Positions 8,471 through 29,090 of a stretch of DNA of 64,000 nt are shown here, one piece after another. The position numbers and the translations under genes were made by a program. Source of the DNA: Alphaproteobacteria bacterium 65-37 (GTDB taxonomy: Bacteria > Pseudomonadota > Alphaproteobacteria > Reyranellales > Reyranellaceae); NCBI GenBank assembly GCA_001897995.1, contig MKRV01000286.1:62001-126000 (forward strand), given 5' to 3'. The notes beneath the pieces are model-generated. The model worked only from the letters and a program-made list of their open reading frames with translations, did not search any database and had not been told where the DNA came from. The stretch's first letter is position 1; the number at the start of each line of letters is the position of its first letter.

Positions 8471-8473
8471 GGC

Positions 8474-9664: not shown

Positions 9665-9674
9665 CGCCTTCTCC

Positions 9675-11297: not shown

Positions 11298-11315
11298 GGC
11301 TGTCTCCTCCGCCGG

Positions 11316-11987
11316 TTAGCGCGTCTTCCCGATGTAGTCCTCGATGATTCGCCGCCACAGTCCGAGCAGACGGTCGAACCGCGCTGGCTCGTTCTGCCAC
11401 AGCATGCGCACGGCGAGGCCGCGCACGAGACCGAGCGTCAGCCACAGCACGTCGTCGGCCGTCTGCTTCGGCATGCCATGCGCGATCAACGCCTGGCGCC
11501 AAGCCTGCTCGGCCGGCAGACGGGCATTGCGCACCATGTCCATGAGCTGTTCGCGGAAGCGCTTGCTGTTGATCGAGGTCGCGATGTCGAGCGAGATGAA
11601 GAACGCCGTGGAAAAGAAGAACTCCCGCGCGTCGTCGATCACCTTCTCCAGCAGATCGTCGCCCTTCTTGATGGCAAGCGCCCGGCTGCAGCTGGTTTCG
11701 AGCACGTTGTGGAAGACGTGCTCCATGGTGGCGTAGACCAGCTTCTCCTTGGTCCTGAAATGATGGAGCTGGGCGCCGCGCGATACCCCGGCCGCCTTCG
11801 CGACGTCGGCGGTGCGAAAATGGGCATAGCCCTTCTTGCGCAGCACCTCGACGGCGGCGTCGAGGACGCGGGTCCGCGTCTCCTCGGTCCGTTCGGCCTG
11901 CGTGCGCCGCTTGGCTCGCCGCACGCGCACGAGCCCGCCATTGCGCCTGCCCGTTCGCTCGCCGCCCGTCCGCTCGACCAGAGACAC
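11316..11987 (-). CDS. TetR-family transcriptional regulator
   Basis: The 223-residue protein has an N-terminal HTH domain (about residues 40-85: RVLDAAVEVLRKKGYAHFRTADVAKAAGVSRGAQLHHFRTKEKLV) after a basic, low-complexity lead of about 35 residues. An all-helical ligand domain follows. Lying 6 bases after the binding-protein gene and 18 before the ligase, it is embedded in the operon it probably controls. Its inducer may be a CoA thioester or the free acid. A start further inside the frame is possible. Confidence 0.88.
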   Translation of the reverse strand: MSLVERTGGERTGRRNGGLVRVRRAKRRTQAERTEETRTRVLDAAVEVLRKKGYAHFRTADVAKAAGVSRGAQLHHFRTKEKLVYATMEHVFHNVLETSCSRALAIKKGDDLLEKVIDDAREFFFSTAFFISLDIATSINSKRFREQLMDMVRNARLPAEQAWRQALIAHGMPKQTADDVLWLTLGLVRGLAVRMLWQNEPARFDRLLGLWRRIIEDYIGKTR

Positions 11988-11993
11988 GCCCGG

Positions 11994-13193: not shown

Positions 13194-13298
13194 GGTTCCC
13201 TCCTCTGCGCCAGCCTCTCGACGGGCCGGTCGCGATTCAGTTAAAAACAGTCCGTCCTGCTTGTAAACAAAAAATCTACCATTTGTTAGGAAACGCCC
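13194..13298. promoter_or_regulatory. Divergent promoter region with an AT-rich core
   Basis: These 105 bases separate the binding-protein operon (minus) from the LigB-type dioxygenase operon (plus). The segment 13245-13285 is strikingly AT-rich for this genome. CTACCATTTGTTAG at 13276-13289 matches CGAACAACTGTTAG in the other divergent promoter (17683-17696) at 10 of 14 positions, including TGTTAG. It may be a shared operator for one of the two TetR proteins. Confidence 0.45.
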
Positions 13299-14345
13299 AT
13301 GGCCGAGATTCTTGCTCTTGGTATTTCGCACTATCCGCCACTCTGGGGTCCGGACGAGCGCATGGCCTGGATCCTGAAGCGCATGCTGCAGAACCCGAAG
13401 CTGCCCGCAGCACTGCGAACGCCCGCAGGCTGGCCCGAGCCGATGCGCGTCGAATGGGGAGATGACGAAGGCAAGGCGGCGGCGGCACGTCATCGCGAGA
13501 CGCTGGTGACGTGGCTCGCCAAGACCCGCGCCGCGCTCGATGCCTTCAAGCCCGACTTCGTGCTGATGTGGGGCGACGACCAGTACGAGAACTTTCGGGA
13601 GGACGTCGTGCCGCCCTACTGCATCGCCGCCTACGACCGCTTCAAGTTCGCCACGCCGGCCGGCAATGTGTGGGGCGAGACGGACAAGATCTTCGACCTG
13701 CCGGGCCATCCCCGGGCCGCCAAGATGCTGGCGACGCAGTTGATCGAGGAAGGCTTCGACACGGCCTATGCCTACAAGCCGCTGCATCATCCGCTGGGGC
13801 ACGCCTTCACCAACGCGGTGCTCTACCTCGACTACGACCGTCGGGGCTTCGACTATCCGATCGTGCCGTTCGCGATCAATTGCTACGGCCGCAGGGTCCT
13901 GGCGCAGCGCGGCGGATTGCCGGTGTTCGATCGCGAGATCGCCGAAGCCGACCTCGATCCGCCGGCGCCGACACCCCGGCGTCTGTTCGACCTCGGGGCG
14001 GCGACGGCACGCATTCTGGCCCGCTCGCCGTGGCGTGTGGCGCTGCTGGCGTCGTCCGGCTGGAGCCACGCCTTCCTGACGGCCAAGAACAACTTCCTGT
14101 GGCCCGACACGCCGGCCGACCGCCGGATGTACGAGGCCCTGGCACGCGGCGACTGGCAGACCTGGCGTGAGATGACCGGCGTGGCGGTCGAGGACAGCGG
14201 CCAGCAGGAGATCCTGAACTGGTCATGCCTGGCCGGCGCGATGAGCGCACTGGAGCGCAAGCCGCGGGAGACCGGCTTCGTCGATACCTGGATCTTCAAC
14301 TCTTCCAAGGCCTTCCTGATCGCGCCGCCGGGAGGCCGGCCATGA
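13299..14345 (+). CDS. LigB-type (class III) extradiol ring-cleavage dioxygenase, catalytic subunit
   Basis: The 348-residue protein resembles the catalytic subunits of class III extradiol dioxygenases, non-haem Fe(II) enzymes that open catecholic rings. ILALGISHYPPL near the N-terminus carries a conserved His (His11). WGDDQYENF (91-99), PLHHPLGHAF (161-170) and ASSGWSHAF (251-259) supply further candidate His and acidic ligands. The next gene (SDR) overlaps its stop by four bases (ATGA), indicating translational coupling. The substrate may be the diol made by one of the Rieske systems. It could also be a non-catabolic member of the superfamily. Confidence 0.75.
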   Translation: MAEILALGISHYPPLWGPDERMAWILKRMLQNPKLPAALRTPAGWPEPMRVEWGDDEGKAAAARHRETLVTWLAKTRAALDAFKPDFVLMWGDDQYENFREDVVPPYCIAAYDRFKFATPAGNVWGETDKIFDLPGHPRAAKMLATQLIEEGFDTAYAYKPLHHPLGHAFTNAVLYLDYDRRGFDYPIVPFAINCYGRRVLAQRGGLPVFDREIAEADLDPPAPTPRRLFDLGAATARILARSPWRVALLASSGWSHAFLTAKNNFLWPDTPADRRMYEALARGDWQTWREMTGVAVEDSGQQEILNWSCLAGAMSALERKPRETGFVDTWIFNSSKAFLIAPPGGRP

Positions 14346-15184
14346 AGCCCGCCCCCAAGCTCGGAGGTCGGGTGGCGATCGTCACCGGCACCAGCCCGAA
14401 TATCGGCGGCGGCATCGCCGAAGGTCTGGCCGCCGAGGGCGCCATCGTCGTCGCCGTCGACAGCATCGCCGCCAATGCCCACGACTGCGCCGACTACATC
14501 GCGAAGAACGGTGGCCAGGCGCTTGGGCTGGTGTGCGATGTCACCGACGAGGCTCAGGTCGAGGTGACGATCGGGGCCGTTCTGAGGACATTCGGGCGCG
14601 TCGACATCCTCGTGAACAACGCCGCCTTCTTCAACAAGAAGGGCGTGCTCGACATGTCCTATGCTGAATTCGATAAGCAGAGCGGCGTGATTCTGGGCGG
14701 GGCATTCCTGTTCACCAAGCACGCCGCCCGGGCGATGATGGGCAGAAGCGGTGCGGCGCCGGGTGGCGTCGTCATCAACATCATCTCGACCGCAGGTCAC
14801 CAGGGCGAGCCGGGCAACATCGCCTACTCCACCGCCAAGGCGGGATTGCTGAACTTCACCCGTTCGGCGGCAATGGAGCTGGTCGGCCATGGCATCCGGG
14901 TCAACAGCCTGACGCCGACCGCCACCGACCCGTCGGAATCCTTCGAGCGCGCCCGGCGCTGGGGCCGCGCGGTGGAAAAGCCCCCCGGTATCGACAAGGT
15001 GATGCGGCCGTTCCGGGAGGGCATCCCGATGAAGAAGCTGCCGGTGCCCAGCGACTACGGCCGGGCGGTTGCCTTCCTCGCTTCGGACGATGCCGCGATG
15101 ATCACCGGGACGGACCTGCGGGTCGACGCCGGCGCCGTGGCCCGCTACTGGGCCTGGGATCCGAAAGCCGGCGCGACGGTTTGA
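14342..15184 (+). CDS. SDR-family dehydrogenase (twin of the gene at 21175)
   Basis: This 280-residue Rossmann-fold oxidoreductase has TGTSPNIGGGIAEG (residues 15-28) as a variant of the TGxxxGxG nucleotide loop, NNAA near 92-95, and catalytic Ser149, Tyr162 and Lys166 (YSTAK). The C-terminus ends in VARYWAWDP. By eye it is about 60 percent identical to the SDR at 21175, including long unbroken blocks, so the two are clear paralogues. Coupled to a ring-cleavage dioxygenase, it may oxidise a cis-dihydrodiol or a hydroxylated intermediate. That role is an inference. Confidence 0.85.
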   Translation: MKPAPKLGGRVAIVTGTSPNIGGGIAEGLAAEGAIVVAVDSIAANAHDCADYIAKNGGQALGLVCDVTDEAQVEVTIGAVLRTFGRVDILVNNAAFFNKKGVLDMSYAEFDKQSGVILGGAFLFTKHAARAMMGRSGAAPGGVVINIISTAGHQGEPGNIAYSTAKAGLLNFTRSAAMELVGHGIRVNSLTPTATDPSESFERARRWGRAVEKPPGIDKVMRPFREGIPMKKLPVPSDYGRAVAFLASDDAAMITGTDLRVDAGAVARYWAWDPKAGATV

Positions 15185-15206
15185 GACGTCGCTTCTGACG
15201 GAAGAC

Positions 15207-15824
15207 CTACGGTTTCACGATCCCGTTGGTCAGCACGCCCATCAGCTCGTCGGCGATCTCGTCGGGGGTCAGCGGGCCCTTGGGATCGTACCATTCGGCG
15301 ACCCAGGTCAGGGCCCCCATGGTGAGCATGCGCACGACCGAGGGATCGAAGCCGCCGCGCAGCAGGTCTTCACGCTGAGCCTCGCGCAGCAGCCGGGCGA
15401 AGATCGCGGCATAGTCGCGCTCCTGCTGCATGTGGTGGTCGCGCAAGCGCTTGGGCAGGCGACGAATCGCCTTGAGCCGCGACGAAAAGTGATGCCGTAG
15501 CGTGTATTTGAGATGGGCGCCGAGGGCGGCGCGCAGACGGACCAGCGCCGAGCTGTCGGCCCCGGCCTCGGCGATCGCCGCCATCACCTCCTCGCGTGCG
15601 CCACCGACGCCGCGCTCCAGGACGGCGCGCAGGATCTCGTCGCGCGAGGAGAAGTGATAGTAGATGCTGCCGGCTTCGATCTTCGCCGCCGCGGCGATGC
15701 GGCGGACCGTGACGTGGTCGGTGCCGTGTTCCTGAAACAGGCGGGTCGCGACCTCTATCAGCCGCGCCCGCGTCTTGTCTGCCTTGGTCAGCTTGCCATT
15801 GGCCGCCTGAACGCCCGTCTGCAT
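15207..15824 (-). CDS. TetR-family transcriptional regulator
   Basis: The 205-residue protein has an N-terminal HTH (LIEVATRLFQEHGTDHVTVRRIAAAAKIEAGSIYYHFSSRDEIL) and a helical C-terminal domain. Start 15824 was chosen because its ATG overlaps the stop of the oxygenase beta gene as TGATG, a re-initiation arrangement; the upstream open frame is not needed. It is the last gene of the operon alpha-beta-tetR and probably controls it from the divergent promoter near 17.65 kb. Confidence 0.88.
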   Translation of the reverse strand: MQTGVQAANGKLTKADKTRARLIEVATRLFQEHGTDHVTVRRIAAAAKIEAGSIYYHFSSRDEILRAVLERGVGGAREEVMAAIAEAGADSSALVRLRAALGAHLKYTLRHHFSSRLKAIRRLPKRLRDHHMQQERDYAAIFARLLREAQREDLLRGGFDPSVVRMLTMGALTWVAEWYDPKGPLTPDEIADELMGVLTNGIVKP

Positions 15825-16342
15825 CAGACGATGATAGTCAACTTCCCGGGGTAAAGCATGTCCATGCTGAGGATGGACCGCTTGGACCTGATCCGGAAGG
15901 GCTCGGTGCGGCAATCGATGCGGTAGAGGTGCTTACCGTAGTAGGTATCGACCACACCGCGCTTGGCGCGGTAGGTGACGAAATTGCAGGCGACATCTGC
16001 CACCCCGTCGGTGACGGCTATGACGCGCACGTTGCTGATCATGTGGCGCTGCTGGGAGCGCGGAAACTCCGAATGCGCCTCCTTCTTGGTGAGCCGCACC
16101 ACCCGCTCGCGCAGCCGTACATAGTCGTCGGCGATGTAAAAAAGCGACGAGGCCGAATCGCTCTCGTCCGAACCGGTCGGCGGCACCTCGTAGGTGGCGC
16201 CTTCGGCGAACAGGGCAAACCATTCCTCGACCTTCCACTCGTCGAGCAGGTCGGCCTCGAAATAGAGAAAATCCTCGATACGGCCGCGCAGTGCCGCCGG
16301 GTCGCTGCGCAAGGCGGGAGCCAGGCCCGCGTCGCCGTTCAC
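15824..16342 (-). CDS. Aromatic-ring-hydroxylating dioxygenase, beta (small) subunit
   Basis: This 172-residue NTF2-like subunit supports the alpha3beta3 oxygenase and carries no metal. Typical sequence: EDFLYFEADLLDEWKVEEWFALFAEGATYEVPP, then KKEAHSEFPRSQQRHMISNVRV and a C-terminal RIRSKRSILSMDM. A GTG at 16342 overlaps the alpha-subunit stop (GTGA) and is preceded by GGGAG; an in-frame ATG at 16369 lacks a binding site. It is a paralogue of the beta subunit at 25031, sharing AHSEFP and RHMISNV. Confidence 0.88.
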   Translation of the reverse strand: MNGDAGLAPALRSDPAALRGRIEDFLYFEADLLDEWKVEEWFALFAEGATYEVPPTGSDESDSASSLFYIADDYVRLRERVVRLTKKEAHSEFPRSQQRHMISNVRVIAVTDGVADVACNFVTYRAKRGVVDTYYGKHLYRIDCRTEPFRIRSKRSILSMDMLYPGKLTIIV

Positions 16343-17622
16343 AGACCGGCTCCCATGCGGCTGCGCCATTGGCGCCAGAAGCAGCGCATCTGCTCCTCGT
16401 CGTCGTTCATCGGCGGGCCCTGACGGGGCATGCCCTTGGAGATGTCGTTCCAGCCGACCTCGCGCATGTTGGAATAGCCGCGCTGACAGTTCTCCAGCGC
16501 CTCCTGGTCATCCGGCGTGGCGAAGCCGCCCGGCCCCAGGAATTCGAGGAAATTGAACAGGCGGAGCTTGCGCAGCTCGTGATCCTCGCCGCGCGGCCCC
16601 AGCGCCCAGGCGCTCACCGTCATCTTGTTCGGCGCCGAGGGCATGAAGGTTCGCACGGTGATCGCCATGATGTCGTTGATCACCAGATTGGGGAAAATCA
16701 GCATGTTGCGGCTGAACTCGGCGATGCGTGTGCCGCGCTCCTCCCCGAAGCGCTGGATCAGGCCGGCACGCAATCGCTCGACGACCTCGCGCTTCTCCTC
16801 GCCCCACGACGGCACCCAGCGCGCGACCGGCCGGCCCCACGGCGAGGCATACTCGATCACCGCGTGGCCGTTGCCGAGATCGGTCATGCCGCTGGCGCCG
16901 AAATGGCCGGCACCCGCCTCCATGCGCAGGCTGCCGATGTTCTTCAGGTAGTCGAAGTAGGTATTGTGCACCGGAAAGCCGTGGAACGCGTCGATGCTGT
17001 TCTCGGCCAGCAGCTTCCAGTTAGCGTTGATGACGTATTGCTGCCCCGATCCGACGATCTCCATGCCGGCCTCGGCATGGTCGGCCACCATGTCGATGTA
17101 GTCCTTGGCGCCGGCGAGGTAGTCCGATAGCGAGATCGCGTTCCTGTCGAAGTTCACGAACCAGAAGTCGCGATGGCTCTCCAGCCGCGGCACCTGGACG
17201 AGATCGGCGCAGCCGCCGCCATAATGTTCCTTGCCGTAATTGCCCTCGTCGAAGCGCGAGGCGAACCGGCCGTTCACGTTGAACGACCAGCCGTGATAAA
17301 AGCAGCGGAACGACAGCGCATTTCCCTTCTTCTCGCGCACCACCATGGCGCCACGATGCGGACAGGTGTTGAGGAAGGCGCGCACGACACCGGCGCGGTC
17401 GCGATTGAAGATCAGCTCGCGTGCGCCGACATTGCGGGTGACGAAGTCGCAATTATTGGCAATCTCCGAGCCATGTCCGACATAGAGCCAGCAACGGTCG
17501 AAGATGCCGCGGCGCTCGGCCTCGAGCACGGTCTCGTCGGTGAAAGCATGGCGTGAGACGCGGAACAGGTGCCGGGCGCGGTCTTCGACGACCATTTCCG
17601 GCGTCGTCAGGATGGTATCCAC
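16339..17622 (-). CDS. Rieske aromatic-ring-hydroxylating dioxygenase, alpha (large) subunit
   Basis: The 427-residue catalytic subunit has a Rieske [2Fe-2S] site CPHRGA...CFYHGW (Cys87, His89, Cys107, His110). The mononuclear iron motif is D-x2-H-x4-H in NSIDAFHGFPVHNTYFDY (bridging Asp211, His214, His219). The third, acidic ligand lies further along. With the beta subunit and the ferredoxin reductase and ferredoxin encoded divergently at 17707-19250 it forms a complete three-component dioxygenase. The closest recognisable group is the benzoate/p-cumate-like large subunits; the substrate is unknown. The second set at 23742 is a paralogue. Confidence 0.93.
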   Translation of the reverse strand: MDTILTTPEMVVEDRARHLFRVSRHAFTDETVLEAERRGIFDRCWLYVGHGSEIANNCDFVTRNVGARELIFNRDRAGVVRAFLNTCPHRGAMVVREKKGNALSFRCFYHGWSFNVNGRFASRFDEGNYGKEHYGGGCADLVQVPRLESHRDFWFVNFDRNAISLSDYLAGAKDYIDMVADHAEAGMEIVGSGQQYVINANWKLLAENSIDAFHGFPVHNTYFDYLKNIGSLRMEAGAGHFGASGMTDLGNGHAVIEYASPWGRPVARWVPSWGEEKREVVERLRAGLIQRFGEERGTRIAEFSRNMLIFPNLVINDIMAITVRTFMPSAPNKMTVSAWALGPRGEDHELRKLRLFNFLEFLGPGGFATPDDQEALENCQRGYSNMREVGWNDISKGMPRQGPPMNDDEEQMRCFWRQWRSRMGAGL

Positions 17623-17706
17623 CTTTTCCTCCCTTTTGCCGAACGACTAGACTTTCGCCGATTTTCGAGTCAACAACAATAACGAACAACTGTTAGATTT
17701 TCATCC
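17623..17706. promoter_or_regulatory. Divergent promoter between oxygenase and electron-transfer operons
   Basis: These 84 bases serve alpha-beta-tetR (minus) and reductase-ferredoxin (plus). An AT-rich stretch runs from about 17660 to 17702. AACAACTGTT (17685-17694) is an imperfect palindrome with AACA and TGTT half-sites, a plausible TetR operator. It resembles the element at 13276-13289. Confidence 0.45.
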
Positions 17707-18918
17707 ATGCCCGTCGCGAACTCCCTGGTGGTCGTCGGCGCGGGTCAAGCCGCCGCCCAGCTCGTTGCCAGCCTTTCACAGGACGGCTACGCAGGTGAGG
17801 TGACGCTGATCGGCGACGAGCCGCACCTGCCCTATCAGCGTCCGCCGCTCTCCAAGAAAGTCCTCACCGGCGAGCTCACGCCCGACCGGCTCAGCGTCAA
17901 GCCGGCGGCGTTCTACGACAAGATCGGCACCCGTCTGCGCCTCGATGCGCGGGTCGAGCGCATCGACCGGGCGACAAAGGAAGTGACGCTGTCCGACGGG
18001 TCGCGGATCGGCTTCACCACCCTGGTGCTGGCCACCGGCAGCCGGGCCCGCACCCTCCCCCTGCAGGGCACCGGCCGAACCGCCACCTTCGTCCTGCGGA
18101 GCATCGCCGACGTCGCAGCGTTGCGCGCCCAGTTCGCCCCCGGCAAAGCGCTCGTCGTGATCGGCGGCGGCTATATCGGCCTCGAGCTCGCCGCCGTGGC
18201 GGTCAAGCAGGAGCTCGAGGTGACGGTGCTCGAGCAGGCACCGCGGGTGATGGCGCGGGGCGTCGGGCCGGTGGTATCGCGCTTCTACGAGCGACTGCAC
18301 CACGAGGAAGGGGTCCGGCTCTGCATGGGCAGCGTCGTCCACGGTGTCGAGGATGGCTGCGTCGTCTGCGCCGGCAGCGAGCATCGTGCCGACCTCGTGC
18401 TGATCGGCGCCGGCGCCGTGCCCAATGCGGAACTGGCCCGCGAGTCGGGGCTTGCCACCGAGAACGGGATCGTGGTCGATGCCGAGTGCCGCACGTCCGA
18501 CCCGGTGATCTACGCCATCGGCGATTGCGCGACCCAGCATCATCCGCTGGTTGGCCGGCGCCTGCGGCTGGAATCGGTGCACAACGCGCTCGAGCAGGCC
18601 CGCATCGCCAGCGCGTCGATCTGCGGCAAGCCGGCGCCCGCGGCGCAGGTCCCCTGGTTCTGGTCCGACCAGTATGACGTCAAGCTGCAGATGGCCGGCC
18701 TGTCGGACGGATACGATCAGGCGGTCGTGCGCGGCGATCCTGACCGCGGCCGGTCATTCGCCGTTTTCTACCTGCGCGACGGTGTTCTGATCGCGGTCGA
18801 CGCCGTCAACCGTCTGCCGGAGTTCATGATGTCGAAGCAGCTCATCGCCGGCCGAGCCCGGATCGACCCGGCGCGGCTCGGCGACGAAAGCATCGCGGTG
18901 AAGGACCTGAAAGGTTGA
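17707..18918 (+). CDS. FAD-dependent NAD(P)H:ferredoxin reductase of the dioxygenase system
   Basis: The 403-residue pyridine nucleotide-disulphide oxidoreductase-like protein has an N-terminal FAD-binding GAGQAA (residues 11-16), LPYQRPPLSKK, TLVLATGSRARTLP, and a second Rossmann motif VVIGGGYIGLELAAVA for NAD(P)H. DPVIYAIGDCA is the FAD-contact motif. It is of the putidaredoxin or rhodocoxin reductase type and passes electrons to the [2Fe-2S] ferredoxin encoded 11 bases downstream. As the only reductase in the island it may serve both oxygenase sets. Confidence 0.92.
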   Translation: MPVANSLVVVGAGQAAAQLVASLSQDGYAGEVTLIGDEPHLPYQRPPLSKKVLTGELTPDRLSVKPAAFYDKIGTRLRLDARVERIDRATKEVTLSDGSRIGFTTLVLATGSRARTLPLQGTGRTATFVLRSIADVAALRAQFAPGKALVVIGGGYIGLELAAVAVKQELEVTVLEQAPRVMARGVGPVVSRFYERLHHEEGVRLCMGSVVHGVEDGCVVCAGSEHRADLVLIGAGAVPNAELARESGLATENGIVVDAECRTSDPVIYAIGDCATQHHPLVGRRLRLESVHNALEQARIASASICGKPAPAAQVPWFWSDQYDVKLQMAGLSDGYDQAVVRGDPDRGRSFAVFYLRDGVLIAVDAVNRLPEFMMSKQLIAGRARIDPARLGDESIAVKDLKG

Positions 18919-18929
18919 GGAAGAAAAGC

Positions 18930-19250
18930 ATGGCGACGATCACATTCGAGGAACCGGACGGCACTCTGCGCAAGGTCGACCTGGCCGGCGGTCAGTCGAT
19001 CATGGAGGGGGCCGTTCGGGCGTCGGTCGCCGGCATCGACGCCGACTGTGGCGGCGCCTGCTCCTGCGCGACCTGCATGGTCTACGTGGCCGATGAGTGG
19101 TGCGATCGGCTGCCGCCCAAGGACGCGGCCGAAACGCAGATGCTGGAATTCTGCCCCCACGTGCAGGAGAACTCGCGCCTCACCTGCCAGATCCCGGTGA
19201 CCGATGCGCTGGACGGGCTGCGGGTCAAGGTACCACCTAGCCAGCACTGA
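18930..19250 (+). CDS. [2Fe-2S] ferredoxin, adrenodoxin/putidaredoxin type
   Basis: This is a 106-residue plant/adrenodoxin-like ferredoxin with cluster ligands Cys40-x5-Cys46-x2-Cys49 and Cys86 (DCGGACSCATC...LTCQIP). It shuttles electrons from the upstream reductase to the Rieske oxygenase. ATG 18930 has a GAGGAAG site 6-12 bases ahead; a TTG at 18915 in frame is less likely. No Rieske-type ferredoxin is present, so the system combines a GR-type reductase with a putidaredoxin-type carrier. Confidence 0.93.
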   Translation: MATITFEEPDGTLRKVDLAGGQSIMEGAVRASVAGIDADCGGACSCATCMVYVADEWCDRLPPKDAAETQMLEFCPHVQENSRLTCQIPVTDALDGLRVKVPPSQH

Positions 19251-19252
19251 CG

Positions 19253-19274
19253 GAGCCCAAAAAAAGGGGGGCTC
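19253..19274. terminator. Short hairpin between convergent genes
   Basis: GAGCCC and GGGCTC flank an A/G-rich loop between the ferredoxin stop and the convergent SDR stop. Read on the minus strand, the loop is T-rich rather than the tail, so terminator function is weakly supported. Confidence 0.35.
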
Positions 19275-20121
19275 AGATCATGGCCATACCGCCGCTGACA
19301 CCGATATGCTGGCCGGTGACGAACGAGGCCTCCGGCGCACCGAAATAGGCGACGGCGGAAGCGACCTCGGTGGGATGCGACGGGCGGCCCATGCTGATGC
19401 CACGCTGTCCCACGATCTTTGCCAGCTCCTCCAGGACGCCCGGACCGGTCCAGCTCGGGTCGCGATAGCTCTCCGCGGGCGGATCGGGATCGCCGTCCGC
19501 TGCAGTCTCGATGCCGCCCGGCGAGACGCAGTTGACGGTGATGCCCTGTGCGATCGTTTCGCCCGCGAGCGTGACGGTCAGGCCGACCATCGAGCCCTTG
19601 CCGACGCCCGCCAGCAGGGTATGGAACGGTGCGCCGGTACGCCAGGCCTCGCCCGCGATATTGACGATGCGGCCATAGCGGCGCTCGATCATGTGCGGCA
19701 GCACCGCCTTGCAGCACCGCAAGGTGTTCCAGACATTCCAGTCGACCGCCTTCTGCAACAGGTCCTCGGTGAAATCGACGAGCCGCAGGCGGATGAGTGC
19801 AGCGGCGTTGTTGACCAGCGTATCGATCCGCCCAAACTCGCCAAGCGTGCGCGCCACCATATCGTCGGCCACACCTTCGCGGCTGAGATCACCGGCGACC
19901 GCGAGGAAAGACTGGCCCGTCTCCTCCTGCAAGAGCCGCGCGGTGCGCTTCACCCGCGCCTCCTGGATATCGGCCACGACGACCTTGGCCCCCTCCTCCG
20001 CCAGCCGCCGCGCGATCACGCGGCCAAGCCCCTGCGCTGCGCCGGTGACGATCGCCACTCGACCGTCGTAGCGGCGGCACTCGGTCTTCACGGCATAAGG
20101 CAGTGTCCTCAGGCCGGTCAT
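19273..20121 (-). CDS. SDR-family protein lacking the catalytic Ser and Tyr
   Basis: The 282-residue protein keeps the SDR nucleotide loop TGAAQGLG (26-33), NNAA (104-107) and the structural Asn129. At the active site VNIAGEAW replaces the usual Ser segment. LLAGVGKGS keeps Lys175 but has Ala171 where Tyr of YxxxK is expected. It ends in a normal substrate-loop and QHIGVSGGMAMI. It may bind a dinucleotide without classical dehydrogenase chemistry, or use another acid/base residue. Its start overlaps the stop of the amidohydrolase gene (ATGA), so the two are coupled. Confidence 0.75.
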   Translation of the reverse strand: MTGLRTLPYAVKTECRRYDGRVAIVTGAAQGLGRVIARRLAEEGAKVVVADIQEARVKRTARLLQEETGQSFLAVAGDLSREGVADDMVARTLGEFGRIDTLVNNAAALIRLRLVDFTEDLLQKAVDWNVWNTLRCCKAVLPHMIERRYGRIVNIAGEAWRTGAPFHTLLAGVGKGSMVGLTVTLAGETIAQGITVNCVSPGGIETAADGDPDPPAESYRDPSWTGPGVLEELAKIVGQRGISMGRPSHPTEVASAVAYFGAPEASFVTGQHIGVSGGMAMI

Positions 20122-21122
20122 GCCGTCTCGCCGAGGAAGCGCCGGGCATTGCCGGAGAGAACGAGGTCGCGATCGGCGGCCGACAGCCCCAGCCGCTCGA
20201 CCGCCGCCACCGGTTCGGTCTCCTCGATGGTGAACGGATGGTCGGTGCCGATGCAGAGCTGCGTCACGCCGAACCGCTCGACCAGGAAGCGCAGGGTGTC
20301 CGTGTCGTAGACCAGCGTGTCGTAATAGAGCCGCCGCGCCAGCTCGGCCGGCGAGCCACCGGTCGCGTCCCTCAGGCCGGGCATCATCTTCCAGCCGTGC
20401 AGGAAGCGCGGCAGCACCAGGGCGAACACGCCGCCACCATGGCTGAAGGCGATGCGCAGCCTCGGATGCCGGCCGATGATGCCGGCCATCATCAGCGACA
20501 CGATCGCGGTCGAGGTCTCGCACGGAAACAGCGCCAGCGCCGGCATGTTGGGTGGACCGACCAGCCGCTCCGTGCCTGCCGGATGCAGGGCGTGCACGAA
20601 GATCGCCGCCCCCAGCCGCTCGGCCGCCGCGAAGAACGCCGCATAGCGCTTGTCGCCGATCGACACGCCGTTGACGTTGGTGCCGATCTCCACGCCCTTG
20701 AAGCCCATCGCCATCAGCCGTTCGAGTTCGACGACCGCGCGATCGGGATCCTGCAGCGGTACCATGCCGAGGCCGGCAAACCGGCCCTTGCCGTCCGAGA
20801 CCATCGTCGCGATCGTGTCGTTGACGTGCCGACCGAGTGCTTCGGCGTCTTCCGGTTCGAGCCAGTAGGACAGCAGCTCCGGCATGGGCGACAGTACCTG
20901 GCACTCGACCCGCGCCGCCTCCATTGCCTCGAGGCGCCGCTCGAGACTCCAACTGTGGTCGCTTACGGTGCGGAACACCTTGCCGGCGATCATGACGTTG
21001 CAGTGGTGGCAGTCGTGTGCCGGTGCCATCGACGGCCAGCGTACATTGGCGTGGCGGCCGGCATAGGCGGGAAAGCTCGCCGGCACGATATGCGTATGGA
21101 TGTCGGTCGTGCCCGTCGTCAT
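20118..21122 (-). CDS. ACMSD-like amidohydrolase (metal-dependent decarboxylase or hydrolase)
   Basis: This 334-residue TIM-barrel amidohydrolase has the metal-binding HxH in TDIHTHIVP (His9, His11), FVHALHP, FSHGGG and GTDHPF, the layout of the aminocarboxymuconate-semialdehyde decarboxylase group. Relatives decarboxylate ring-cleavage products or aromatic acids, or hydrolyse lactones; all fit this island. GAGGGAACGA precedes ATG 21122; the upstream open frame has no such site. It is divergent from the SDR/GntR/Rieske operon at 21175. Confidence 0.85.
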   Translation of the reverse strand: MTTGTTDIHTHIVPASFPAYAGRHANVRWPSMAPAHDCHHCNVMIAGKVFRTVSDHSWSLERRLEAMEAARVECQVLSPMPELLSYWLEPEDAEALGRHVNDTIATMVSDGKGRFAGLGMVPLQDPDRAVVELERLMAMGFKGVEIGTNVNGVSIGDKRYAAFFAAAERLGAAIFVHALHPAGTERLVGPPNMPALALFPCETSTAIVSLMMAGIIGRHPRLRIAFSHGGGVFALVLPRFLHGWKMMPGLRDATGGSPAELARRLYYDTLVYDTDTLRFLVERFGVTQLCIGTDHPFTIEETEPVAAVERLGLSAADRDLVLSGNARRFLGETA

Positions 21123-21174
21123 TCGTTCCCTCGATATCTTTGCTGTATCGTGCGGCGACGTTATGGGAGTTCGG
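21123..21174. promoter_or_regulatory. Short divergent promoter region
   Basis: Fifty-two bases separate the amidohydrolase and SDR start codons. They must hold both ribosome-binding sites and either overlapping promoters or signals within the coding ends. I see no clear palindrome. Confidence 0.4.
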
Positions 21175-21987
21175 ATGAAACTCAAAGACAAAGTCGCCCT
21201 CGTCACCGGCACCAGTCCCAATATCGGCGGCGGCATCGCCGAAGGCCTCGCAGCGGAAGGCGCAGCGCTGGTCTGTGTCGATGCGATGGCGGCGAACGCC
21301 ACCGACTGCGCGAACTATCTGAAGAGCACCGGCGCCCAGGCGCTCGCCGTCACCTGCGACGTCACTGCCGAAGCCGAGGTCGCCGCCGCGGTGCAGAAGG
21401 CCTGCGATACCTTCGGCCGGATCGACGTGCTGGTGAACAACGCCGTCGTCTTCAACAAGAAAGGCGTGCTCACCATGCCGCTCGAGGATTGGCGCCGGCA
21501 GATCGACGTGATCCTGACCGGCGCCTTCCTGTTCACCAAGCATGCCGCACGTTCGATGATCGACCGCCAGGTGCGCGGCAGCATCCTCAACATCATCTCG
21601 ACCGCCGGCCACCAGGGCGAGCCCAACAATATCGGCTATTCGACGGCCAAAAGCGGCCTGATCAACTTCACCCGCTCCGCCGCGATGGAACTGGTCAAGC
21701 ACGGCATCCGGGTCAACAGCCTGACGCCGACCGCGACCGACCCGTCCGAATCGGCGGAGCGCGCCCAGCGCTGGGGCCGCGCGGCGCCCGATCTTTCGGC
21801 GGTGAAACCGATCTTCGAGATGTATCGCAGCCGCATCCCGATGCAGAAGTTGCCCAAGCCCAGTGACTATGGCCGCGCCGCCGCCTTCATCGTCTCGACG
21901 GAAGCCGAGATGATGACCGGCACTGACCTGCGCATCGATGCCGGCGCCATCGCCCGCTACTGGCCGTGGGATCCGGCCGCCTCGTGA
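21175..21987 (+). CDS. SDR-family dehydrogenase (twin of the gene at 14342)
   Basis: The 270-residue SDR shares with the protein at 14342 the loop TGTSPNIGGGIAEGLAAEGA, FNKKGVL, GAFLFTKHAAR, IISTAGHQGEP, YSTAK and the RYW.WDP C-terminus. The catalytic Ser, Tyr and Lys are all present. Start 21175 follows GGGAG; ATG 21163 in the same frame is possible. The GntR gene begins within its stop codon (GTGA), so it heads the operon SDR-gntR-bug-alpha-beta-VOC. Its probable role is rearomatising the diol from the second Rieske oxygenase. Confidence 0.85.
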   Translation: MKLKDKVALVTGTSPNIGGGIAEGLAAEGAALVCVDAMAANATDCANYLKSTGAQALAVTCDVTAEAEVAAAVQKACDTFGRIDVLVNNAVVFNKKGVLTMPLEDWRRQIDVILTGAFLFTKHAARSMIDRQVRGSILNIISTAGHQGEPNNIGYSTAKSGLINFTRSAAMELVKHGIRVNSLTPTATDPSESAERAQRWGRAAPDLSAVKPIFEMYRSRIPMQKLPKPSDYGRAAAFIVSTEAEMMTGTDLRIDAGAIARYWPWDPAAS

Positions 21988-22700
21988 CGCGCGCCGCCAA
22001 GCCGAAACCGCGCGCCTTCGAGGAGATCTGCGAGCGCATCCGCCGGCAACTCGCGACCGGCAGACTGAAGCCCGGCGACAAGCTGCCGGCCGAACGCGAG
22101 CTCGCCGAGCAGCTCAAGGTGAGCCGTGCGGCACTGCGCGAGGCGCTGCGCAGCCTGGAGATCGCCGGCGTGATCGCACTCAAGAAAGGCGTGAAAGGCG
22201 GCGCCTTCGTGCAGTCGGGCGATCCCGCCAACATGACGCGGGTCATGCAGGACCTTGTGCATCTCGGGGCGATCTCACTCGGCGACCTCACCGAGGCGCG
22301 ACTGCTGATCCAGAGCGGCGTCGTGTGGCTGGCCTGCGAGCGCGCCACCGAGGCCGACATCGACGCGATCGGCCGCAACATCGAACGCACGGCGGAGATG
22401 TCGCGACTGGGCCGCGGCGAGGAACGCCGCGCCGCCATCGCGGAGTTTTACCGGCTGCTGGCACTGGCGACACGCAACGAAGTGCTGAAGATCCTGGTCG
22501 ATTCCATCACCGACATTCTCGTCCGCTTCCTGCGCGGCGTGCCGGAGGATATCGAGCTGCCCGGCCTGATCGCTCATCGCCGCCGCTTCTTCCGATATCT
22601 CAAGGCACGCGATTCCGCCAATGCCACCAAGGAGTTGGAGCGCCATCTGAAAGAGCTGCACGATCATCTCGCCAGCCGGAGTCGACAAGAAATGGTCTGA
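21984..22700 (+). CDS. GntR-family (FadR subfamily) transcriptional regulator
   Basis: The 238-residue protein has a winged HTH (ICERIRRQLATGRLKPGDKLPAERELAEQLKVSRAALREALRSLEIAGVI) and a C-terminal all-helical FCD-type effector domain. The FCD domain usually binds carboxylic acids. The GTG at 21984 overlaps the SDR stop by four bases; another GTG at 21966 is in frame. A perfect 15-bp palindrome over its own 3' end (22691-22705) is the likely operator for the downstream transporter and oxygenase genes. Confidence 0.9.
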   Translation: MTRAAKPKPRAFEEICERIRRQLATGRLKPGDKLPAERELAEQLKVSRAALREALRSLEIAGVIALKKGVKGGAFVQSGDPANMTRVMQDLVHLGAISLGDLTEARLLIQSGVVWLACERATEADIDAIGRNIERTAEMSRLGRGEERRAAIAEFYRLLALATRNEVLKILVDSITDILVRFLRGVPEDIELPGLIAHRRRFFRYLKARDSANATKELERHLKELHDHLASRSRQEMV

Positions 22701-22705
22701 CCATT
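22691..22705. promoter_or_regulatory. Probable GntR/FadR-type operator
   Basis: AATGGTCTGACCATT is a perfect palindrome (7-bp arms, one central base). It spans the stop codon of the gntR gene and lies 31 bases before the Bug gene. The core TGGTCnGACCA matches the established operator form of FadR-subfamily regulators, so local control of the bug-Rieske genes by the adjacent regulator is likely. Confidence 0.75.
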
Positions 22706-22735
22706 ACAGTGGCGGGCAATAAGACGGAGGAAACG

Positions 22736-23701
22736 TTGCTCGCTCGCATTGCGCTGGGCCTTCTGGCCCTGCTGATCGGGCTGCCCGCTGCGGCGCAGGG
22801 ATGGCCAGACAAGCCGGTGAAGATTGTGCTGGGCGTTCCGCCGGGAGGCGGGCTGGACGTGCTGGTGCGCGGCATGGCCGCCGAGCTTTCGACCAAGTGG
22901 GGCAAGGCCGTCGTGGTCGACAACAAGCCCGGCGCCAGCGGCATGATCGCAGCCGAGAGCATCGCCAACGCCAGCCCCGACGGCTATTCGCTGCTGGCGA
23001 CGACCGACCAGATCTATCTCGGCAACCGCTTCGCGTTCAAGAGCCCGCCCTACGATCCCGACAAGAGCTTCGCCAACATCACCATCATGGCGCGGGCCGA
23101 GCAGTTCCTGCTCGCCAATCCCCAGGTCGAGGCCAGGACGCTCGCCGACCTGATCGCCGCCGGCAGGCAGAAGCCCGGGTCGCTCGCTTATGGCAGTTGG
23201 GGCGACGGCAGTCCGCCCCACCTCGTCTACGAGACGCTGAACCGGAACGCCGGCACCAAGTTCCTCCACGTGCCCTACAAGGGCGTGGCACCGGTGCTGA
23301 ACGCGCTCACCGGCAACGAAGTGCAGCTCTCGGTCGGCAGCAGCGGCGTCGCCGGCAGCCTGCTGCGAGCCGGCAAGCTGCAAGCGCTGGCAATCGCGGC
23401 CAAGCAGCGCTCGCCGCTTTTTCCCGAAGTGCCGACCACGGCCGAGCTCGGCCATGCCGACATCCAGGCTTTCATCTGGTTCGGCCTCGCGGCACCGGCC
23501 GGCACGCCGCGCCCGATCGTCGACAAGATCAGCGCCGACGTGCGCGAGGTGCTGAAACAGCCGGCCTTTACCGAACGCTTCATCACCACGCCGGGCTGGA
23601 CGGTGATCGGCACCGATCCGGCGGAAACCGACCAGACCATCCGCAACGAGCTGCCGATCATCCGTGAAATGACCGCAGCCGCCGGCGTCAAGCCTCAGTG
23701 A
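22736..23701 (+). CDS. Bug-family (TctC-like) periplasmic solute-binding protein
   Basis: The 321-residue receptor has a signal peptide (LARIALGLLALLIGLPAAAQ) and family blocks IVLGVPPGGGLDVLVRG, VVDNKPGASGMIAAE and HVPYKGVAPVLNALTG. The start is taken as TTG 22736 because GGAGGAAACG stands just before it and the signal peptide begins there. No ATG is available nearby. Between the GntR operator and the Rieske genes, it probably binds the aromatic acid that the operon degrades. No TctAB membrane partner is in the window. Confidence 0.88.
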   Translation: MLARIALGLLALLIGLPAAAQGWPDKPVKIVLGVPPGGGLDVLVRGMAAELSTKWGKAVVVDNKPGASGMIAAESIANASPDGYSLLATTDQIYLGNRFAFKSPPYDPDKSFANITIMARAEQFLLANPQVEARTLADLIAAGRQKPGSLAYGSWGDGSPPHLVYETLNRNAGTKFLHVPYKGVAPVLNALTGNEVQLSVGSSGVAGSLLRAGKLQALAIAAKQRSPLFPEVPTTAELGHADIQAFIWFGLAAPAGTPRPIVDKISADVREVLKQPAFTERFITTPGWTVIGTDPAETDQTIRNELPIIREMTAAAGVKPQ

Positions 23702-23741
23702 TGGGCCCAATGACGGGCACCAGCAAAGGAAGGAGCAGGCC

Positions 23742-25028
23742 ATGCAACTGTCCGACCTCATCATCGACGACCGACACCAGGCACGCTTCAAGGTCCATCG
23801 CAGCGCCTTCGTGTCCGACGAAATCCTGGCGCTGGAGCGCGAGCGCGTGTTCAGCAAGTGCTGGCTCTATCTCGGCCACAGTTCGGAGCTGAAGAAGCCC
23901 GGCGACTTCATCTCGCGGCGGGTCGGCGGCCGACCGCTGCTCTACACCCGCGGCAAGGACAACGCGCTGCACGCGCTCTACAACACCTGCCCGCATCGCG
24001 GCGCGCTGGTCTGCCGCGAGCGATCGGGCAACCGCCGCGCCTTTACCTGCGGCTACCACGCCTGGACGTTCGACGATTGCGGCCGCTTCCTCGGCATGCC
24101 CGGGCGCGAGGCGTTGCCGCCGGAGGCGACCGAGGATGGCAAGCTCGACCTCGTCGAGGTCGAACGCATGGAGGAGTTCCGCGGCTTCGTCTTCGTCTGC
24201 TTCGACAGGAACGCGATGCCGCTACGCGACTATCTCGCCGGCGCGGCCGAATATCTCGAATACGTCGCCGACCAGGGCCGCGACGGTATGGAGATCGTGA
24301 CCGGCACGCAGGACTACTGCGTAAACGCCAACTGGAAGCTGCTGCAGGAGAATTCGGCAGACGGCTATCACGGCGTGCCGACCCATTCGACCTACTTCGA
24401 CTACATCCGCTCGCGCGACAACTCCAACTTCGGCGGCATGAATGCCAAGGGATGGGTGAAGAATCTCGGCAATGGCCATGCCGTGTCGGAATCGATCGGC
24501 CTGCTGCCCTGGGGCCGGCCTTACGCCCGCTGGGCGCCGGGTTGGGGCGAGGAGGCGAAGGCCGAGGTCGAAACCCTGAACAGGGAGATCATGCAGCGGC
24601 TGGGCCCGGAGCGCGGCAACGTCGTCGCCAACGGCGACCGCAATCTCCTGATCTTCCCCAACCTCGTCGTCAACGACGTGATGGCGACGACCATCCGCAC
24701 CTTCTATCCGGTACGGCCGGACCACATGGAGGTGAGTGCCTGGTGCATTGCGCCAACCGGCGAATCCGAAAGCTCGCGCGACCGACGCCTGCGCAACTTC
24801 GTGGAGTTCCTCGGGCCGGCCGGCTTCGCCACGCCCGACGATGTCGAGATGCTGGAACTCTGCCAGCGCGGCTATGCCAATGCGGCATCCGCCCCCTACA
24901 ACGACCTGTCGCGCGGCATGCTGAGCAACGCCCCGACCAAGACCGACGAGCTGCAGATGCGCACGTTCTGGCGGCGCTGGCACCAGCTCGTGGCCGACGA
25001 CGCCGCCCGCGAGCTGACAGGACCGTGA
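23742..25028 (+). CDS. Rieske aromatic-ring-hydroxylating dioxygenase, alpha subunit (second set)
   Basis: The 428-residue catalytic subunit has the Rieske site CPHRGA...CGYHAW (Cys83, His85, Cys103, His106) and the iron motif NSADGYHGVPTHSTYFDY (Asp207, His210, His215). It is a paralogue of the alpha subunit at 16339, sharing LGNGHAV, WGRP and GPxGFATPDD blocks. GGAAGGAGCAGGCC precedes ATG 23742. No electron-transfer genes accompany this set; the reductase and ferredoxin at 17707-19250 are the nearest candidates. Confidence 0.93.
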   Translation: MQLSDLIIDDRHQARFKVHRSAFVSDEILALERERVFSKCWLYLGHSSELKKPGDFISRRVGGRPLLYTRGKDNALHALYNTCPHRGALVCRERSGNRRAFTCGYHAWTFDDCGRFLGMPGREALPPEATEDGKLDLVEVERMEEFRGFVFVCFDRNAMPLRDYLAGAAEYLEYVADQGRDGMEIVTGTQDYCVNANWKLLQENSADGYHGVPTHSTYFDYIRSRDNSNFGGMNAKGWVKNLGNGHAVSESIGLLPWGRPYARWAPGWGEEAKAEVETLNREIMQRLGPERGNVVANGDRNLLIFPNLVVNDVMATTIRTFYPVRPDHMEVSAWCIAPTGESESSRDRRLRNFVEFLGPAGFATPDDVEMLELCQRGYANAASAPYNDLSRGMLSNAPTKTDELQMRTFWRRWHQLVADDAARELTGP

Positions 25029-25030
25029 CG

Positions 25031-25510
25031 ATGAAACTCTCCCGATCCGACGCCGAAGATTTCCTCATCCGGGAAACCGCGTTGCTCGATTCCTGGAAGC
25101 TGATGGAATGGGCCGACCTCTTCACGGAGGACGGCGAATACCTGGTGCCGGCGACCGACGATCCCGAAGGCAAGGCGGGAAAGTCGCTGTTCCTGATCTA
25201 CGACGACCGCCACCGGCTGGGCGAGCGCGCCAAGCGGCTCCTGAAGCCGACGGCGCATTCGGAGTTCCCCCATTCGCGGACCCGCCACATGATCAGCAAC
25301 GTGACGACGGCGGAGGGCGACAACGGAGCCATCCCGGTGAGCTGCAACTTCGTGGTCTTCCGCAGCCGCATGGAAGTGACCAACATCTATCCCGGCCACG
25401 CCGAATACCTGCTGGTGCAGGGAGGCGACGGGCTCAGGATCAGAAGCAAAAAGGCCGTGCTCGACGTCGACGCACTGCGGCCGCACGGCAAGATCAGCAT
25501 CATCCTCTGA
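25031..25510 (+). CDS. Aromatic-ring-hydroxylating dioxygenase, beta subunit (second set)
   Basis: The 159-residue NTF2-like subunit has DFLIRETALLDSWKLMEWADLFTEDGEYLVPATDD, TAHSEFPHSRTRHMISNV and a C-terminal RIRSKKAVLDVDAL. It is paralogous to the beta subunit at 15824 and partner of the alpha subunit 2 bases upstream. A GTG at 25025 overlapping the alpha stop is an alternative start adding two residues. The small gap indicates co-translation and fixed stoichiometry. Confidence 0.9.
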   Translation: MKLSRSDAEDFLIRETALLDSWKLMEWADLFTEDGEYLVPATDDPEGKAGKSLFLIYDDRHRLGERAKRLLKPTAHSEFPHSRTRHMISNVTTAEGDNGAIPVSCNFVVFRSRMEVTNIYPGHAEYLLVQGGDGLRIRSKKAVLDVDALRPHGKISIIL

Positions 25511-25520
25511 GGAGGCCACC

Positions 25521-26447
25521 ATGGAAGGCTACGAGAAGCTGGGATACATGGCGCTGAACGTCGCCGATGTCGGCCGCAGCTGCGACTTCTACGAACGGCA
25601 GGTCGGCCTGCAAGCGAGCGGCGACGCCGAGGGCGTAGCCTTCCTCCGCTGCAGCGAGGACCATCACAACATTTCTTTGCATGCCGCCGACAAGCCGGGC
25701 CTCAAGCGGGCCGGCTTCGAGATGAAGAGCGCGAAGGCACTGGACGAGCTGGCCGCGCGGCTGGCGGGCGAAGGGATCGCGGTGGTTGAGGTGCCGGTGG
25801 CGGAGCGCAAGCTTCTGGGCCTCGGCCGCGCCTTCCGCATCACCGAACCCCATACCGGCGCGACCTACGAATTCTACGACCACATGCGCCAGTGGGGCGG
25901 CCAGCCCTTCCAGCCGACCGTCGCCAAGATCCAACGGCTCGGCCATTTCGTGCTGAAGGTAGCGGCGTTCGAGGCGGCCTGCCGGTTCCACACCGATGTG
26001 CTGGGCTTCCGCGTGTCCGACGAGATCGACGGCACGATCTGCTTCATGCGCTGCCATCCCAATCCCTATCATCACGGCGTTGGGCTCGGCCGCGCCAACG
26101 AGACCCTGCTGCATCACGTGAATTTCATGGTTACCGAAGTCGACGATATCGGCCGGGCGATCTCGCGCTTTGCCAAGGCGCAGGTGCCGATCGTCAACGG
26201 CCCGGGCCGCCACCCGCCCTCCGGCAGCATGTTCCTCTACTATCTCGATCCCGACGGTATCACGGTCGAGTACAGCTTCGGCATGGAGGAGTTTCCCGTC
26301 GAGGGCGCGCGCAAGCCGAGGGTCATGGAGCCCATCAAGGCATCGATCGACTACTGGGACAGTTTCCTCGATCCCCGCAAGGCCACCGTAGGGGCAGTCG
26401 AGCGGATGTCCCCGACGACAAAGGCAACCGAGGCGGCGGCGGAATAG
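25521..26447 (+). CDS. VOC-superfamily (type I) extradiol dioxygenase, catechol 2,3-dioxygenase-like
   Basis: The 308-residue protein has two VOC modules. The C-terminal one carries the Fe(II) triad: His142 in LGHFVLKV, His198 or His199 in LLHHVNFMV, and Glu250 in DPDGITVEYSFG. LDPDGITVEY is close to the extradiol signature. It should open the ring of a catechol made by the second Rieske oxygenase and SDR. It closes the operon, 10 bases after the beta subunit. The island thus holds two unrelated extradiol enzymes, this one and the LigB type at 13299. Confidence 0.88.
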   Translation: MEGYEKLGYMALNVADVGRSCDFYERQVGLQASGDAEGVAFLRCSEDHHNISLHAADKPGLKRAGFEMKSAKALDELAARLAGEGIAVVEVPVAERKLLGLGRAFRITEPHTGATYEFYDHMRQWGGQPFQPTVAKIQRLGHFVLKVAAFEAACRFHTDVLGFRVSDEIDGTICFMRCHPNPYHHGVGLGRANETLLHHVNFMVTEVDDIGRAISRFAKAQVPIVNGPGRHPPSGSMFLYYLDPDGITVEYSFGMEEFPVEGARKPRVMEPIKASIDYWDSFLDPRKATVGAVERMSPTTKATEAAAE

Positions 26448-29072: not shown

Positions 29073-29090
29073 CGCTTCCTTTCGCTACGC

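What the first reader, a model, noticed from the sequence alone, without database searches (positions are those of the whole stretch)
13194..26447. Two-branch Rieske dioxygenase island with one shared electron-transfer chain
The island holds two Rieske alpha/beta pairs (15824-17622 and 23742-25510), but only one ferredoxin reductase and one ferredoxin (17707-19250). Each pair sits near one of two twin SDRs and one of two unrelated extradiol dioxygenases (LigB type at 13299, VOC type at 25521). An ACMSD-like amidohydrolase, two binding proteins and three regulators (two TetR, one GntR) complete it. The composition suggests a pathway in which one aromatic acid is hydroxylated, rearomatised and ring-opened by two parallel or successive routes. 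I know of no described cluster with exactly this set; the substrate is unknown.
Basis: partly seen in the sequence, partly recalled or inferred. Interest (0 to 1): 0.72.

Follow-up and report, generated by a model that had tools for sequence, protein, structure and literature searches.

The report
Two joined aromatic-acid degradation cassettes
A soil-type bacterium carries two separately inherited gene sets for breaking aromatic rings side by side, probably sharing one electron supply, and one of them has a ring-opening-type protein whose iron-binding site holds an unusual amino acid.

Summary
The genes are real and mostly at the stated places. They form not one two-branch pathway but two cassettes, each found without the other beside it in relatives. 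Cassette A (7349-19250) runs past the stated left border: uptake protein, CoA ligase, two acyl-CoA dehydrogenases, LigB-SDR1, alpha1-beta1-TetR1, ferredoxin reductase-ferredoxin, tied together by a conserved 14-bp palindrome. Cassette B (19273-26447) is SDR2-amidohydrolase and SDR3-GntR-TctC-alpha2-beta2-VOC. In the island only A brings a reductase and ferredoxin and only B an ACMSD-like enzyme. The likely chemistry follows the published opa (o-phthalate/2,3-dihydroxybenzoate) logic; the substrate is unknown, and 4-hydroxy-2-oxovalerate aldolase was found in 0 of 26 carrier genomes. The most surprising part was not in the finding: the LigB-type protein has Gln95 where classical enzymes have the second iron-binding His (Gln in 249 of 249 aligned proteins) while the other active-site residues are kept. 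No other extradiol gene was detected beside it in 31 of 35 loci, but copies also stand without Rieske genes nearby. Its function is untested.

The parts
7349..8470 (-). cassette A: acyl-CoA dehydrogenase ACAD2 (resembles IpdE2 and PimD, far under their cut-offs)
   Evidence: Pfam, NCBIfam; order
8474..9664 (-). cassette A: acyl-CoA dehydrogenase ACAD1 (resembles PimC, under cut-off; best solved relatives Tcur3483 and 4x28)
9675..11297 (-). cassette A: acyl-CoA ligase FACL
11316..11987 (-). cassette A: TetR0 regulator
11994..13193 (-). cassette A: Peripla_BP_6 substrate-binding protein (SBP6)
13276..13289 (+). palindromic operator-like site CTAACANNTGTTAG (1 mismatch) between SBP6 and LigB
13299..14345 (+). 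cassette A: LigB-fold protein with Gln95 in place of the second iron-binding His (LigB-Q)
14342..15184 (+). cassette A: SDR1, likely cis-dihydrodiol dehydrogenase (inferred)
15207..15824 (-). cassette A: TetR1 regulator, last gene of the alpha1-beta1-TetR1 run
15824..16369 (-). cassette A: Rieske oxygenase beta1
16339..17622 (-). cassette A: Rieske oxygenase alpha1
17683..17696 (+). second operator-like site (1 mismatch) between alpha1 and FdR
17707..18918 (+). cassette A: GR-type ferredoxin reductase FdR
18930..19250 (+). cassette A: Fer2-type [2Fe-2S] ferredoxin
   Evidence: (ORF 18915-19250), start chosen
19273..20121 (-). cassette B: SDR2
   Evidence: (ORF 19273-21702)
20118..21122 (-). 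cassette B: ACMSD-like amidohydrolase, likely decarboxylase (inferred)
21175..21987 (+). cassette B: SDR3, twin of SDR1
21984..22700 (+). cassette B: GntR/FCD regulator
22736..23701 (+). cassette B: TctC-type binding protein
   Evidence: ORF 21938-23701
23742..25028 (+). cassette B: Rieske oxygenase alpha2
25031..25510 (+). cassette B: Rieske oxygenase beta2
25521..26447 (+). cassette B: VOC-type extradiol dioxygenase with canonical H142-H199-E250

Best explanation
Two separately inherited catabolic cassettes joined end to end at about 19250/19273 in a Reyranella-like bacterium. In each, a Rieske oxygenase puts a cis-diol on an aromatic acid, an SDR restores the ring and an extradiol-type enzyme opens it: LigB-Q in A, a canonical VOC enzyme in B. 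The ACMSD-like amidohydrolase then removes the carboxyl group, possibly for both cassettes, as it is the only such gene in the island. A's GR-type reductase and Fer2 ferredoxin probably feed both oxygenases. Uptake differs (ABC-type binding protein for A, TctC-type for B), as does control (TetR type with a 14-bp palindrome for A, GntR for B). A's CoA ligase and paired acyl-CoA dehydrogenases probably process a side chain or the ring-opened product, since the usual 4-hydroxy-2-oxovalerate route is missing. Shown: genes, motifs, separate occurrence, joint palindrome, no aldolase found. Inferred: substrates, order of steps, sharing of parts, activity of LigB-Q.
For: Identity table: A genes match A loci L010, L011, L013, L022, for example alpha1 86-87%, LigB 82-83%, FACL 89%; B genes match B loci L107-L109, for example alpha2 90-92%, amidohydrolase 89-91%, VOC 86-89%. 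Those four A loci have an amidohydrolase only 52-54% identical. B is complete and in the same order in 5 of 5 loci (window, L107-L110). The palindrome (up to 2 mismatches) lies within 206 bp of the alpha1 or FdR start in 14 of 14 scanned loci that hold the 5' end of a close alpha1, and at the LigB start in 10 of 14, with 0 sites in the 3 B loci L107-L109. In L029 it also lies between FdR and ACAD1 and upstream of SBP6, which ties CoA genes to the regulon. One strong Reductase_C gene in the genome. OpaD of the opa cluster, an ACMSD relative, is reported to decarboxylate the ring-fission product of 2,3-dihydroxybenzoate (PMC6362003 passages). No 4-hydroxy-2-oxovalerate aldolase at E 1e-40 or better in 26 of 26 genomes (whose own controls gave no signal); the same search finds it in 6 of 9 other records.
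Against: No substrate or activity data. LigB-Q lacks a classical iron ligand, and copies 78-81% identical in L121-L125 have no close alpha gene in the held 20 kb (none in L121 and L124, a 28-34% match in L122, L123, L125), so its role may not depend on the oxygenase; in L116 LigB, TetR1, FdR, Fdx and an amidohydrolase are present but alpha1 and beta1 are not detected. Two LigB/alpha1 loci, L014 and L113, carry an amidohydrolase 79-80% and an SDR 70% identical to the window's B genes, so these two genes are not exclusive to B. FACL and the ACADs are not linked in L014, L016, L017 and L116. Reductase sharing is not shown: G258 has B without a GR-type reductase, and other reductase-type domains exist in the genome. 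No ring-fission hydrolase family appears among the island's genes. Which regulator binds the palindrome is unknown.
Confidence: 0.57

Rival explanations
1. One reading: one pathway in which one aromatic acid is processed by two successive or parallel routes sharing one electron-transfer chain.
For: Tight clustering in the window; twin SDRs; joined arrangement also in G243 (L110 = L015), where alpha1-beta1, FdR, Fdx and B lie together; amidohydrolase and SDR of B type beside alpha1 in L014 and L113.
Against: B without adjacent A in G242 and G258; A loci L010, L011, L013, L022 and others with no B in the held stretch, and alpha2 of 85% or more in only 5 of 61 family genomes; different regulator types; palindrome absent from B loci. 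SDR3 is 87-88% identical to B copies and 67-69% to A copies, so the twins are older than the junction.
Confidence: 0.2
2. LigB-Q is not an oxygenase: the His-to-Gln change made it a metal-dependent isomerase, lyase or hydrolase, or a partner without activity, and ring cleavage in A is done by a gene elsewhere.
For: Gln at the ligand position in all members examined; copies without Rieske genes nearby.
Against: The other active-site residues are kept: H168, H257 and E304 in 249 of 249 and H11 in 246 with 3 gaps. It is the only extradiol-type gene detected in 31 of 35 held loci, including meta-cleavage gene sets on plasmids of Mycobacterium paragordonae and Pseudonocardia.
Confidence: 0.35
3. 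Cassette A degrades an alicyclic or side-chain-bearing acid through CoA esters, and the Rieske oxygenase hydroxylates an aliphatic or partly aromatised ring, as in steroid-type catabolism.
For: ACAD pair resembling IpdE2 and 4x28; CoA ligase of 70% or more linked in 7 of 10 named loci with LigB and alpha1; no aldolase found.
Against: Both alphas score highest with BenA among NCBIfam models; related clusters in Hyphomonas and M. paragordonae carry the aromatic lower pathway.
Confidence: 0.25

Closest known systems
opa cluster of Pseudomonas sp. PTH10 (o-phthalate 2,3-dioxygenase, 2,3-dihydroxybenzoate meta-cleavage; PMC6362003, abstract and passages seen)
   Same: Alpha/beta oxygenase with ferredoxin and reductase, dihydrodiol dehydrogenase, type I (VOC) extradiol dioxygenase, ACMSD-related decarboxylase
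   Different: No LigB-Q, CoA ligase, acyl-CoA dehydrogenases, TctC or GntR named in the passages seen; opa carries hydratase, aldolase and acetaldehyde dehydrogenase, whereas no true 4-hydroxy-2-oxovalerate aldolase was found in this genome
cmt/psb p-cumate and dhb 2,3-dihydroxybenzoate pathways (named in passages of PMC6362003; further details recalled)
   Same: 2,3-dihydroxylated aromatic acid cleaved next to the carboxyl-bearing carbon, then decarboxylated
   Different: DhbB is a class II aldolase-type decarboxylase (PMC6362003 passage); CmtD of the same kind is recalled
LigAB, DesB, MhpB (LigB-superfamily extradiol dioxygenases)
   Different: Second iron ligand His is Gln95
Class IIA Rieske systems (dioxin dioxygenase type; recalled)
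   Same: GR-type reductase plus Fer2 ferredoxin
   Different: One chain beside two oxygenases from two cassettes

Membership tests
alpha/beta Rieske ring-hydroxylating oxygenase | Rieske C-x-H...C-x2-H and mononuclear D-x2-H-x4-H in alpha | tested here: met
   both alphas
alpha/beta Rieske ring-hydroxylating oxygenase | Ring_hydroxyl_B small subunit | tested here: met
   94.6 and 106.2 bits
BenA / AntA / AndAc / HcaE equivalogs | score above curated cut-off | tested here: not met
   BenA 257.8 and 295.7 against 780.95; the others lower, against 671.9-830
class IIA electron-transfer chain | GR-type reductase (Pyr_redox_2 + Reductase_C) and Fer2 ferredoxin | tested here: met
LigB-superfamily (class III) extradiol dioxygenase | LigB fold | tested here: met
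LigB-superfamily (class III) extradiol dioxygenase | 2-His-1-Glu iron site: His12, His61, Glu242 of LigB (numbers recalled) | tested here: not met
   H11 and E304 present, His61 equivalent is Gln95
LigB-superfamily (class III) extradiol dioxygenase | catalytic His195 equivalent (number recalled) | tested here: met
   H257, 249 of 249
LigB-superfamily (class III) extradiol dioxygenase | Fe(II)-dependent ring cleavage | not testable with these tools
   needs purified protein
VOC-type (class I) extradiol dioxygenase | H-H-E iron site | tested here: met
   H142, H199, E250 by position and alignment with other VOC proteins, one of which (L050a) lacks the two His
opa/cmt-type meta-cleavage pathway | oxygenase, SDR, extradiol enzyme and decarboxylase-type genes together | tested here: met
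opa/cmt-type meta-cleavage pathway | lower pathway with 4-hydroxy-2-oxovalerate aldolase | tested here: not met
   own genome only sub-cut-off matches, best 53.6 bits against 286; 0 of 26 genomes; positive in 6 of 9 other records
ACMSD-like decarboxylase | decarboxylates a ring-fission product | not testable with these tools
   sequence only: 200.7 bits to ACMSD chains 4igm and 2wm1

The most novel reading that the evidence does not exclude
LigB-Q belongs to a large, unrecognised clade of ring-cleaving dioxygenases that bind iron (or another metal) through His-Gln-Glu instead of two His and one Glu, and in Reyranella it feeds a ring-opened acid into CoA-dependent oxidation rather than the hydratase-aldolase route.
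Probability: 0.35. Interest if true: 0.75.

Novelty: new variant of a known kind. Interest (0 to 1): 0.5.

Why it matters
If LigB-Q is an active dioxygenase, a textbook iron site can work with glutamine, which bears on how metal choice and oxygen chemistry are set and on automatic annotation: records call such proteins 'hypothetical protein' or 'extradiol ring-cleavage dioxygenase'. If it is not, many predicted ring-cleavage steps are wrongly named. The cassette view shows how two pathways can meet and may pool an electron supply and a decarboxylase.

Tried and rejected
Recent local duplication as the source of the two sets: rejected, because each set is closer to its own kind elsewhere than to the other. 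Membership in BenA, AntA, AndAc or HcaE: rejected on curated cut-offs. LigJ-type hydratase for the amidohydrolase: weak, E about 3e-4 against 3e-58 for ACMSD. Misalignment as the cause of Gln95: rejected. Proteins annotated as gallate dioxygenase (L134), protocatechuate 4,5-dioxygenase (L133), class III extradiol dioxygenase (L138) and 2,3-dihydroxyphenylpropionate 1,2-dioxygenase (L137), the pCAR1 meta-cleavage protein (L132; CarBb is a recalled name, the record calls it AmrB) and L054 all show His there; a DNA motif open to His or Gln gave hits in 5 of 385 genomes, all with Gln codons. One weak candidate, L105, gave no protein passing the profile cut and was dropped.

Literature for a Gln-type LigB enzyme: searches gave no paper; others gave listings in which I saw none by title or abstract start. 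Of these I opened only PMC4250580, PMC6362003, PMC9836352, PMC10992316 and PMC4019311, as passages. The library holds open-licence papers only. The KA1 plasmid pCAR3 carries a Gln-type gene beside oxygenase genes; the review PMC10992316 names putative dbf/fln genes on this plasmid, but I could not tie this gene to a tested activity. LigB and DesB residue numbers and roles are recalled; the alignment gives H12, H59 and E240 for the annotated gallate dioxygenase. The fold search was a second look at Foldseek's list; distances in the model were not measured.

Full report
What is there. The window lies in a 7.15 Mb draft genome, about 91% complete; among named records the closest proteins are mostly from Reyranella and its family. 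Gene borders were set from ORFs, codon-position composition and protein families. Both oxygenase pairs, the reductase, the ferredoxin, the LigB and VOC proteins, the amidohydrolase and the binding proteins are present. The genome has 10 matches to the alpha-subunit catalytic domain, two of them these, and 3 to the beta subunit, two of them these.

Two cassettes. A scan with alpha1 gave 34 distinct named loci. Ten of them hold both LigB and an alpha1 of at least 80% identity (L010, L011, L013, L014, L016, L017, L019, L022, L029, L037); 7 of the 10 also hold the CoA ligase at 70% or more, and L014, L016 and L017 do not. None of the ten shows a complete cassette B in the held stretch; L014, like the unnamed L113, has an amidohydrolase 79-80% and an SDR 70% identical to the window's B genes. 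In 61 genomes of the family, counting the window's own, an alpha2 of at least 85% identity occurs in 5. In all 5 the eight-gene order SDR2-amidohydrolase / SDR3-GntR-TctC-alpha2-beta2-VOC is complete. It stands without adjacent cassette A in G242 (where A lies on another contig) and G258 (where LigB gives only a weak match), beside a different LigB and oxygenase set in G244, and joined to alpha1-beta1-FdR-Fdx in G243, as in the window. By its record title G243's assembly also holds a separate A locus, L013. The table otherwise separates A genes from B genes cleanly, so SDR1 and SDR3 are twins by older descent, not by recent local copying.

Regulation. A 14-bp palindrome CTAACANNTGTTAG with up to 2 mismatches occurs twice in the 64-kb window, at 13276 and 17683 (expected 0.18; 1 of 100 shuffles had 2 or more). 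The pattern was drawn from these two places, so the test is its conservation. In the loci scanned it lies within 206 bp of the alpha1 or FdR start in 14 of 14 that hold the 5' end of a close alpha1 (the window included), and at the LigB start in 10 of 14 (misses L014, L017, L109, L116). The three B loci L107-L109 have no site. Loci with more distant alphas, and L121-L125, were not scanned. In L029, where the genes are rearranged, sites lie before LigB, between FdR and ACAD1, before alpha1 and before SBP6. I infer TetR1 as the binding protein because its gene follows beta1; TetR0 is possible.

Electron transfer. The reductase is of the GR type with a Fer2 ferredoxin. It is the only strong Reductase_C match in the genome; the second scores 33.4 bits with a stop inside. 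Four FAD_binding_6 matches exist. Of 10 relatives searched for Reductase_C, 8 have one; G258, with cassette B, and G217 have none. In G203 and G209 the reductase lies away from the ferredoxin and alpha1. Sharing is thus likely here but not a rule.

Likely chemistry. Among NCBIfam models both alphas score highest with BenA but far under its cut-off. The amidohydrolase is nearest to ACMSD. In the opa cluster an ACMSD-related enzyme removes the carboxyl group after extradiol cleavage of 2,3-dihydroxybenzoate (PMC6362003). This suggests dioxygenation next to a ring carboxylate, rearomatisation, cleavage and decarboxylation. The 4-hydroxy-2-oxovalerate aldolase that ends such pathways was found in 0 of 26 genomes that carry LigB-Q or an alpha2 relative. 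That search had no signal in its own controls; the same query found the enzyme in 6 of 9 other records, and not in Reyranella soli, Vineibacter terrae or the genome of L041. CoA ligase and an acyl-CoA dehydrogenase pair resembling IpdE2, Tcur3483 and 4x28 proteins may take over. The substrate remains unknown.

Verdict. The island is real and of a known kind in its parts. As a two-cassette junction it is a new variant of moderate interest; the Gln-type LigB clade is the part that a specialist would want tested.

Noticed in passing
window 13299-14345; motif at residues 92-99: LigB-fold protein with GDDQYENF where classical enzymes have Asp-His; relatives with this Gln occur in Alphaproteobacteria and Actinomycetota
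   Followed up: yes
L050 (Pseudosulfitobacter plasmid): A related alpha/beta-SDR-ferredoxin set sits beside carboxyl transferase, crotonase and acyl-CoA dehydrogenase genes, two VOC proteins and lower-pathway genes, which may hint at a branched side chain on its substrate
   Followed up: no
L121 9845-10948, L122, L123, L124, L125: LigB-Q copies without close Rieske genes in other family genomes; in L121 beside BatA-type and pirin genes, and in L010 a pirin gene also lies near the amidohydrolase end of cassette A
   Followed up: partly
L116 (G227): Cassette A with LigB, TetR1, FdR, Fdx and amidohydrolase but no alpha1 or beta1 detected
   Followed up: no
L132 (pCAR1 2950-3759): A LigB-type protein next to a 'subunit of meta-cleavage enzyme' gene is named 'AmmeMemoRadiSam system protein B' in the record, apparently a wrong name
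   Followed up: no
window 26454-31831: DUF4175 (TIGR02302) protein, lysA and argH border the island on the right: ordinary chromosomal genes
   Followed up: no
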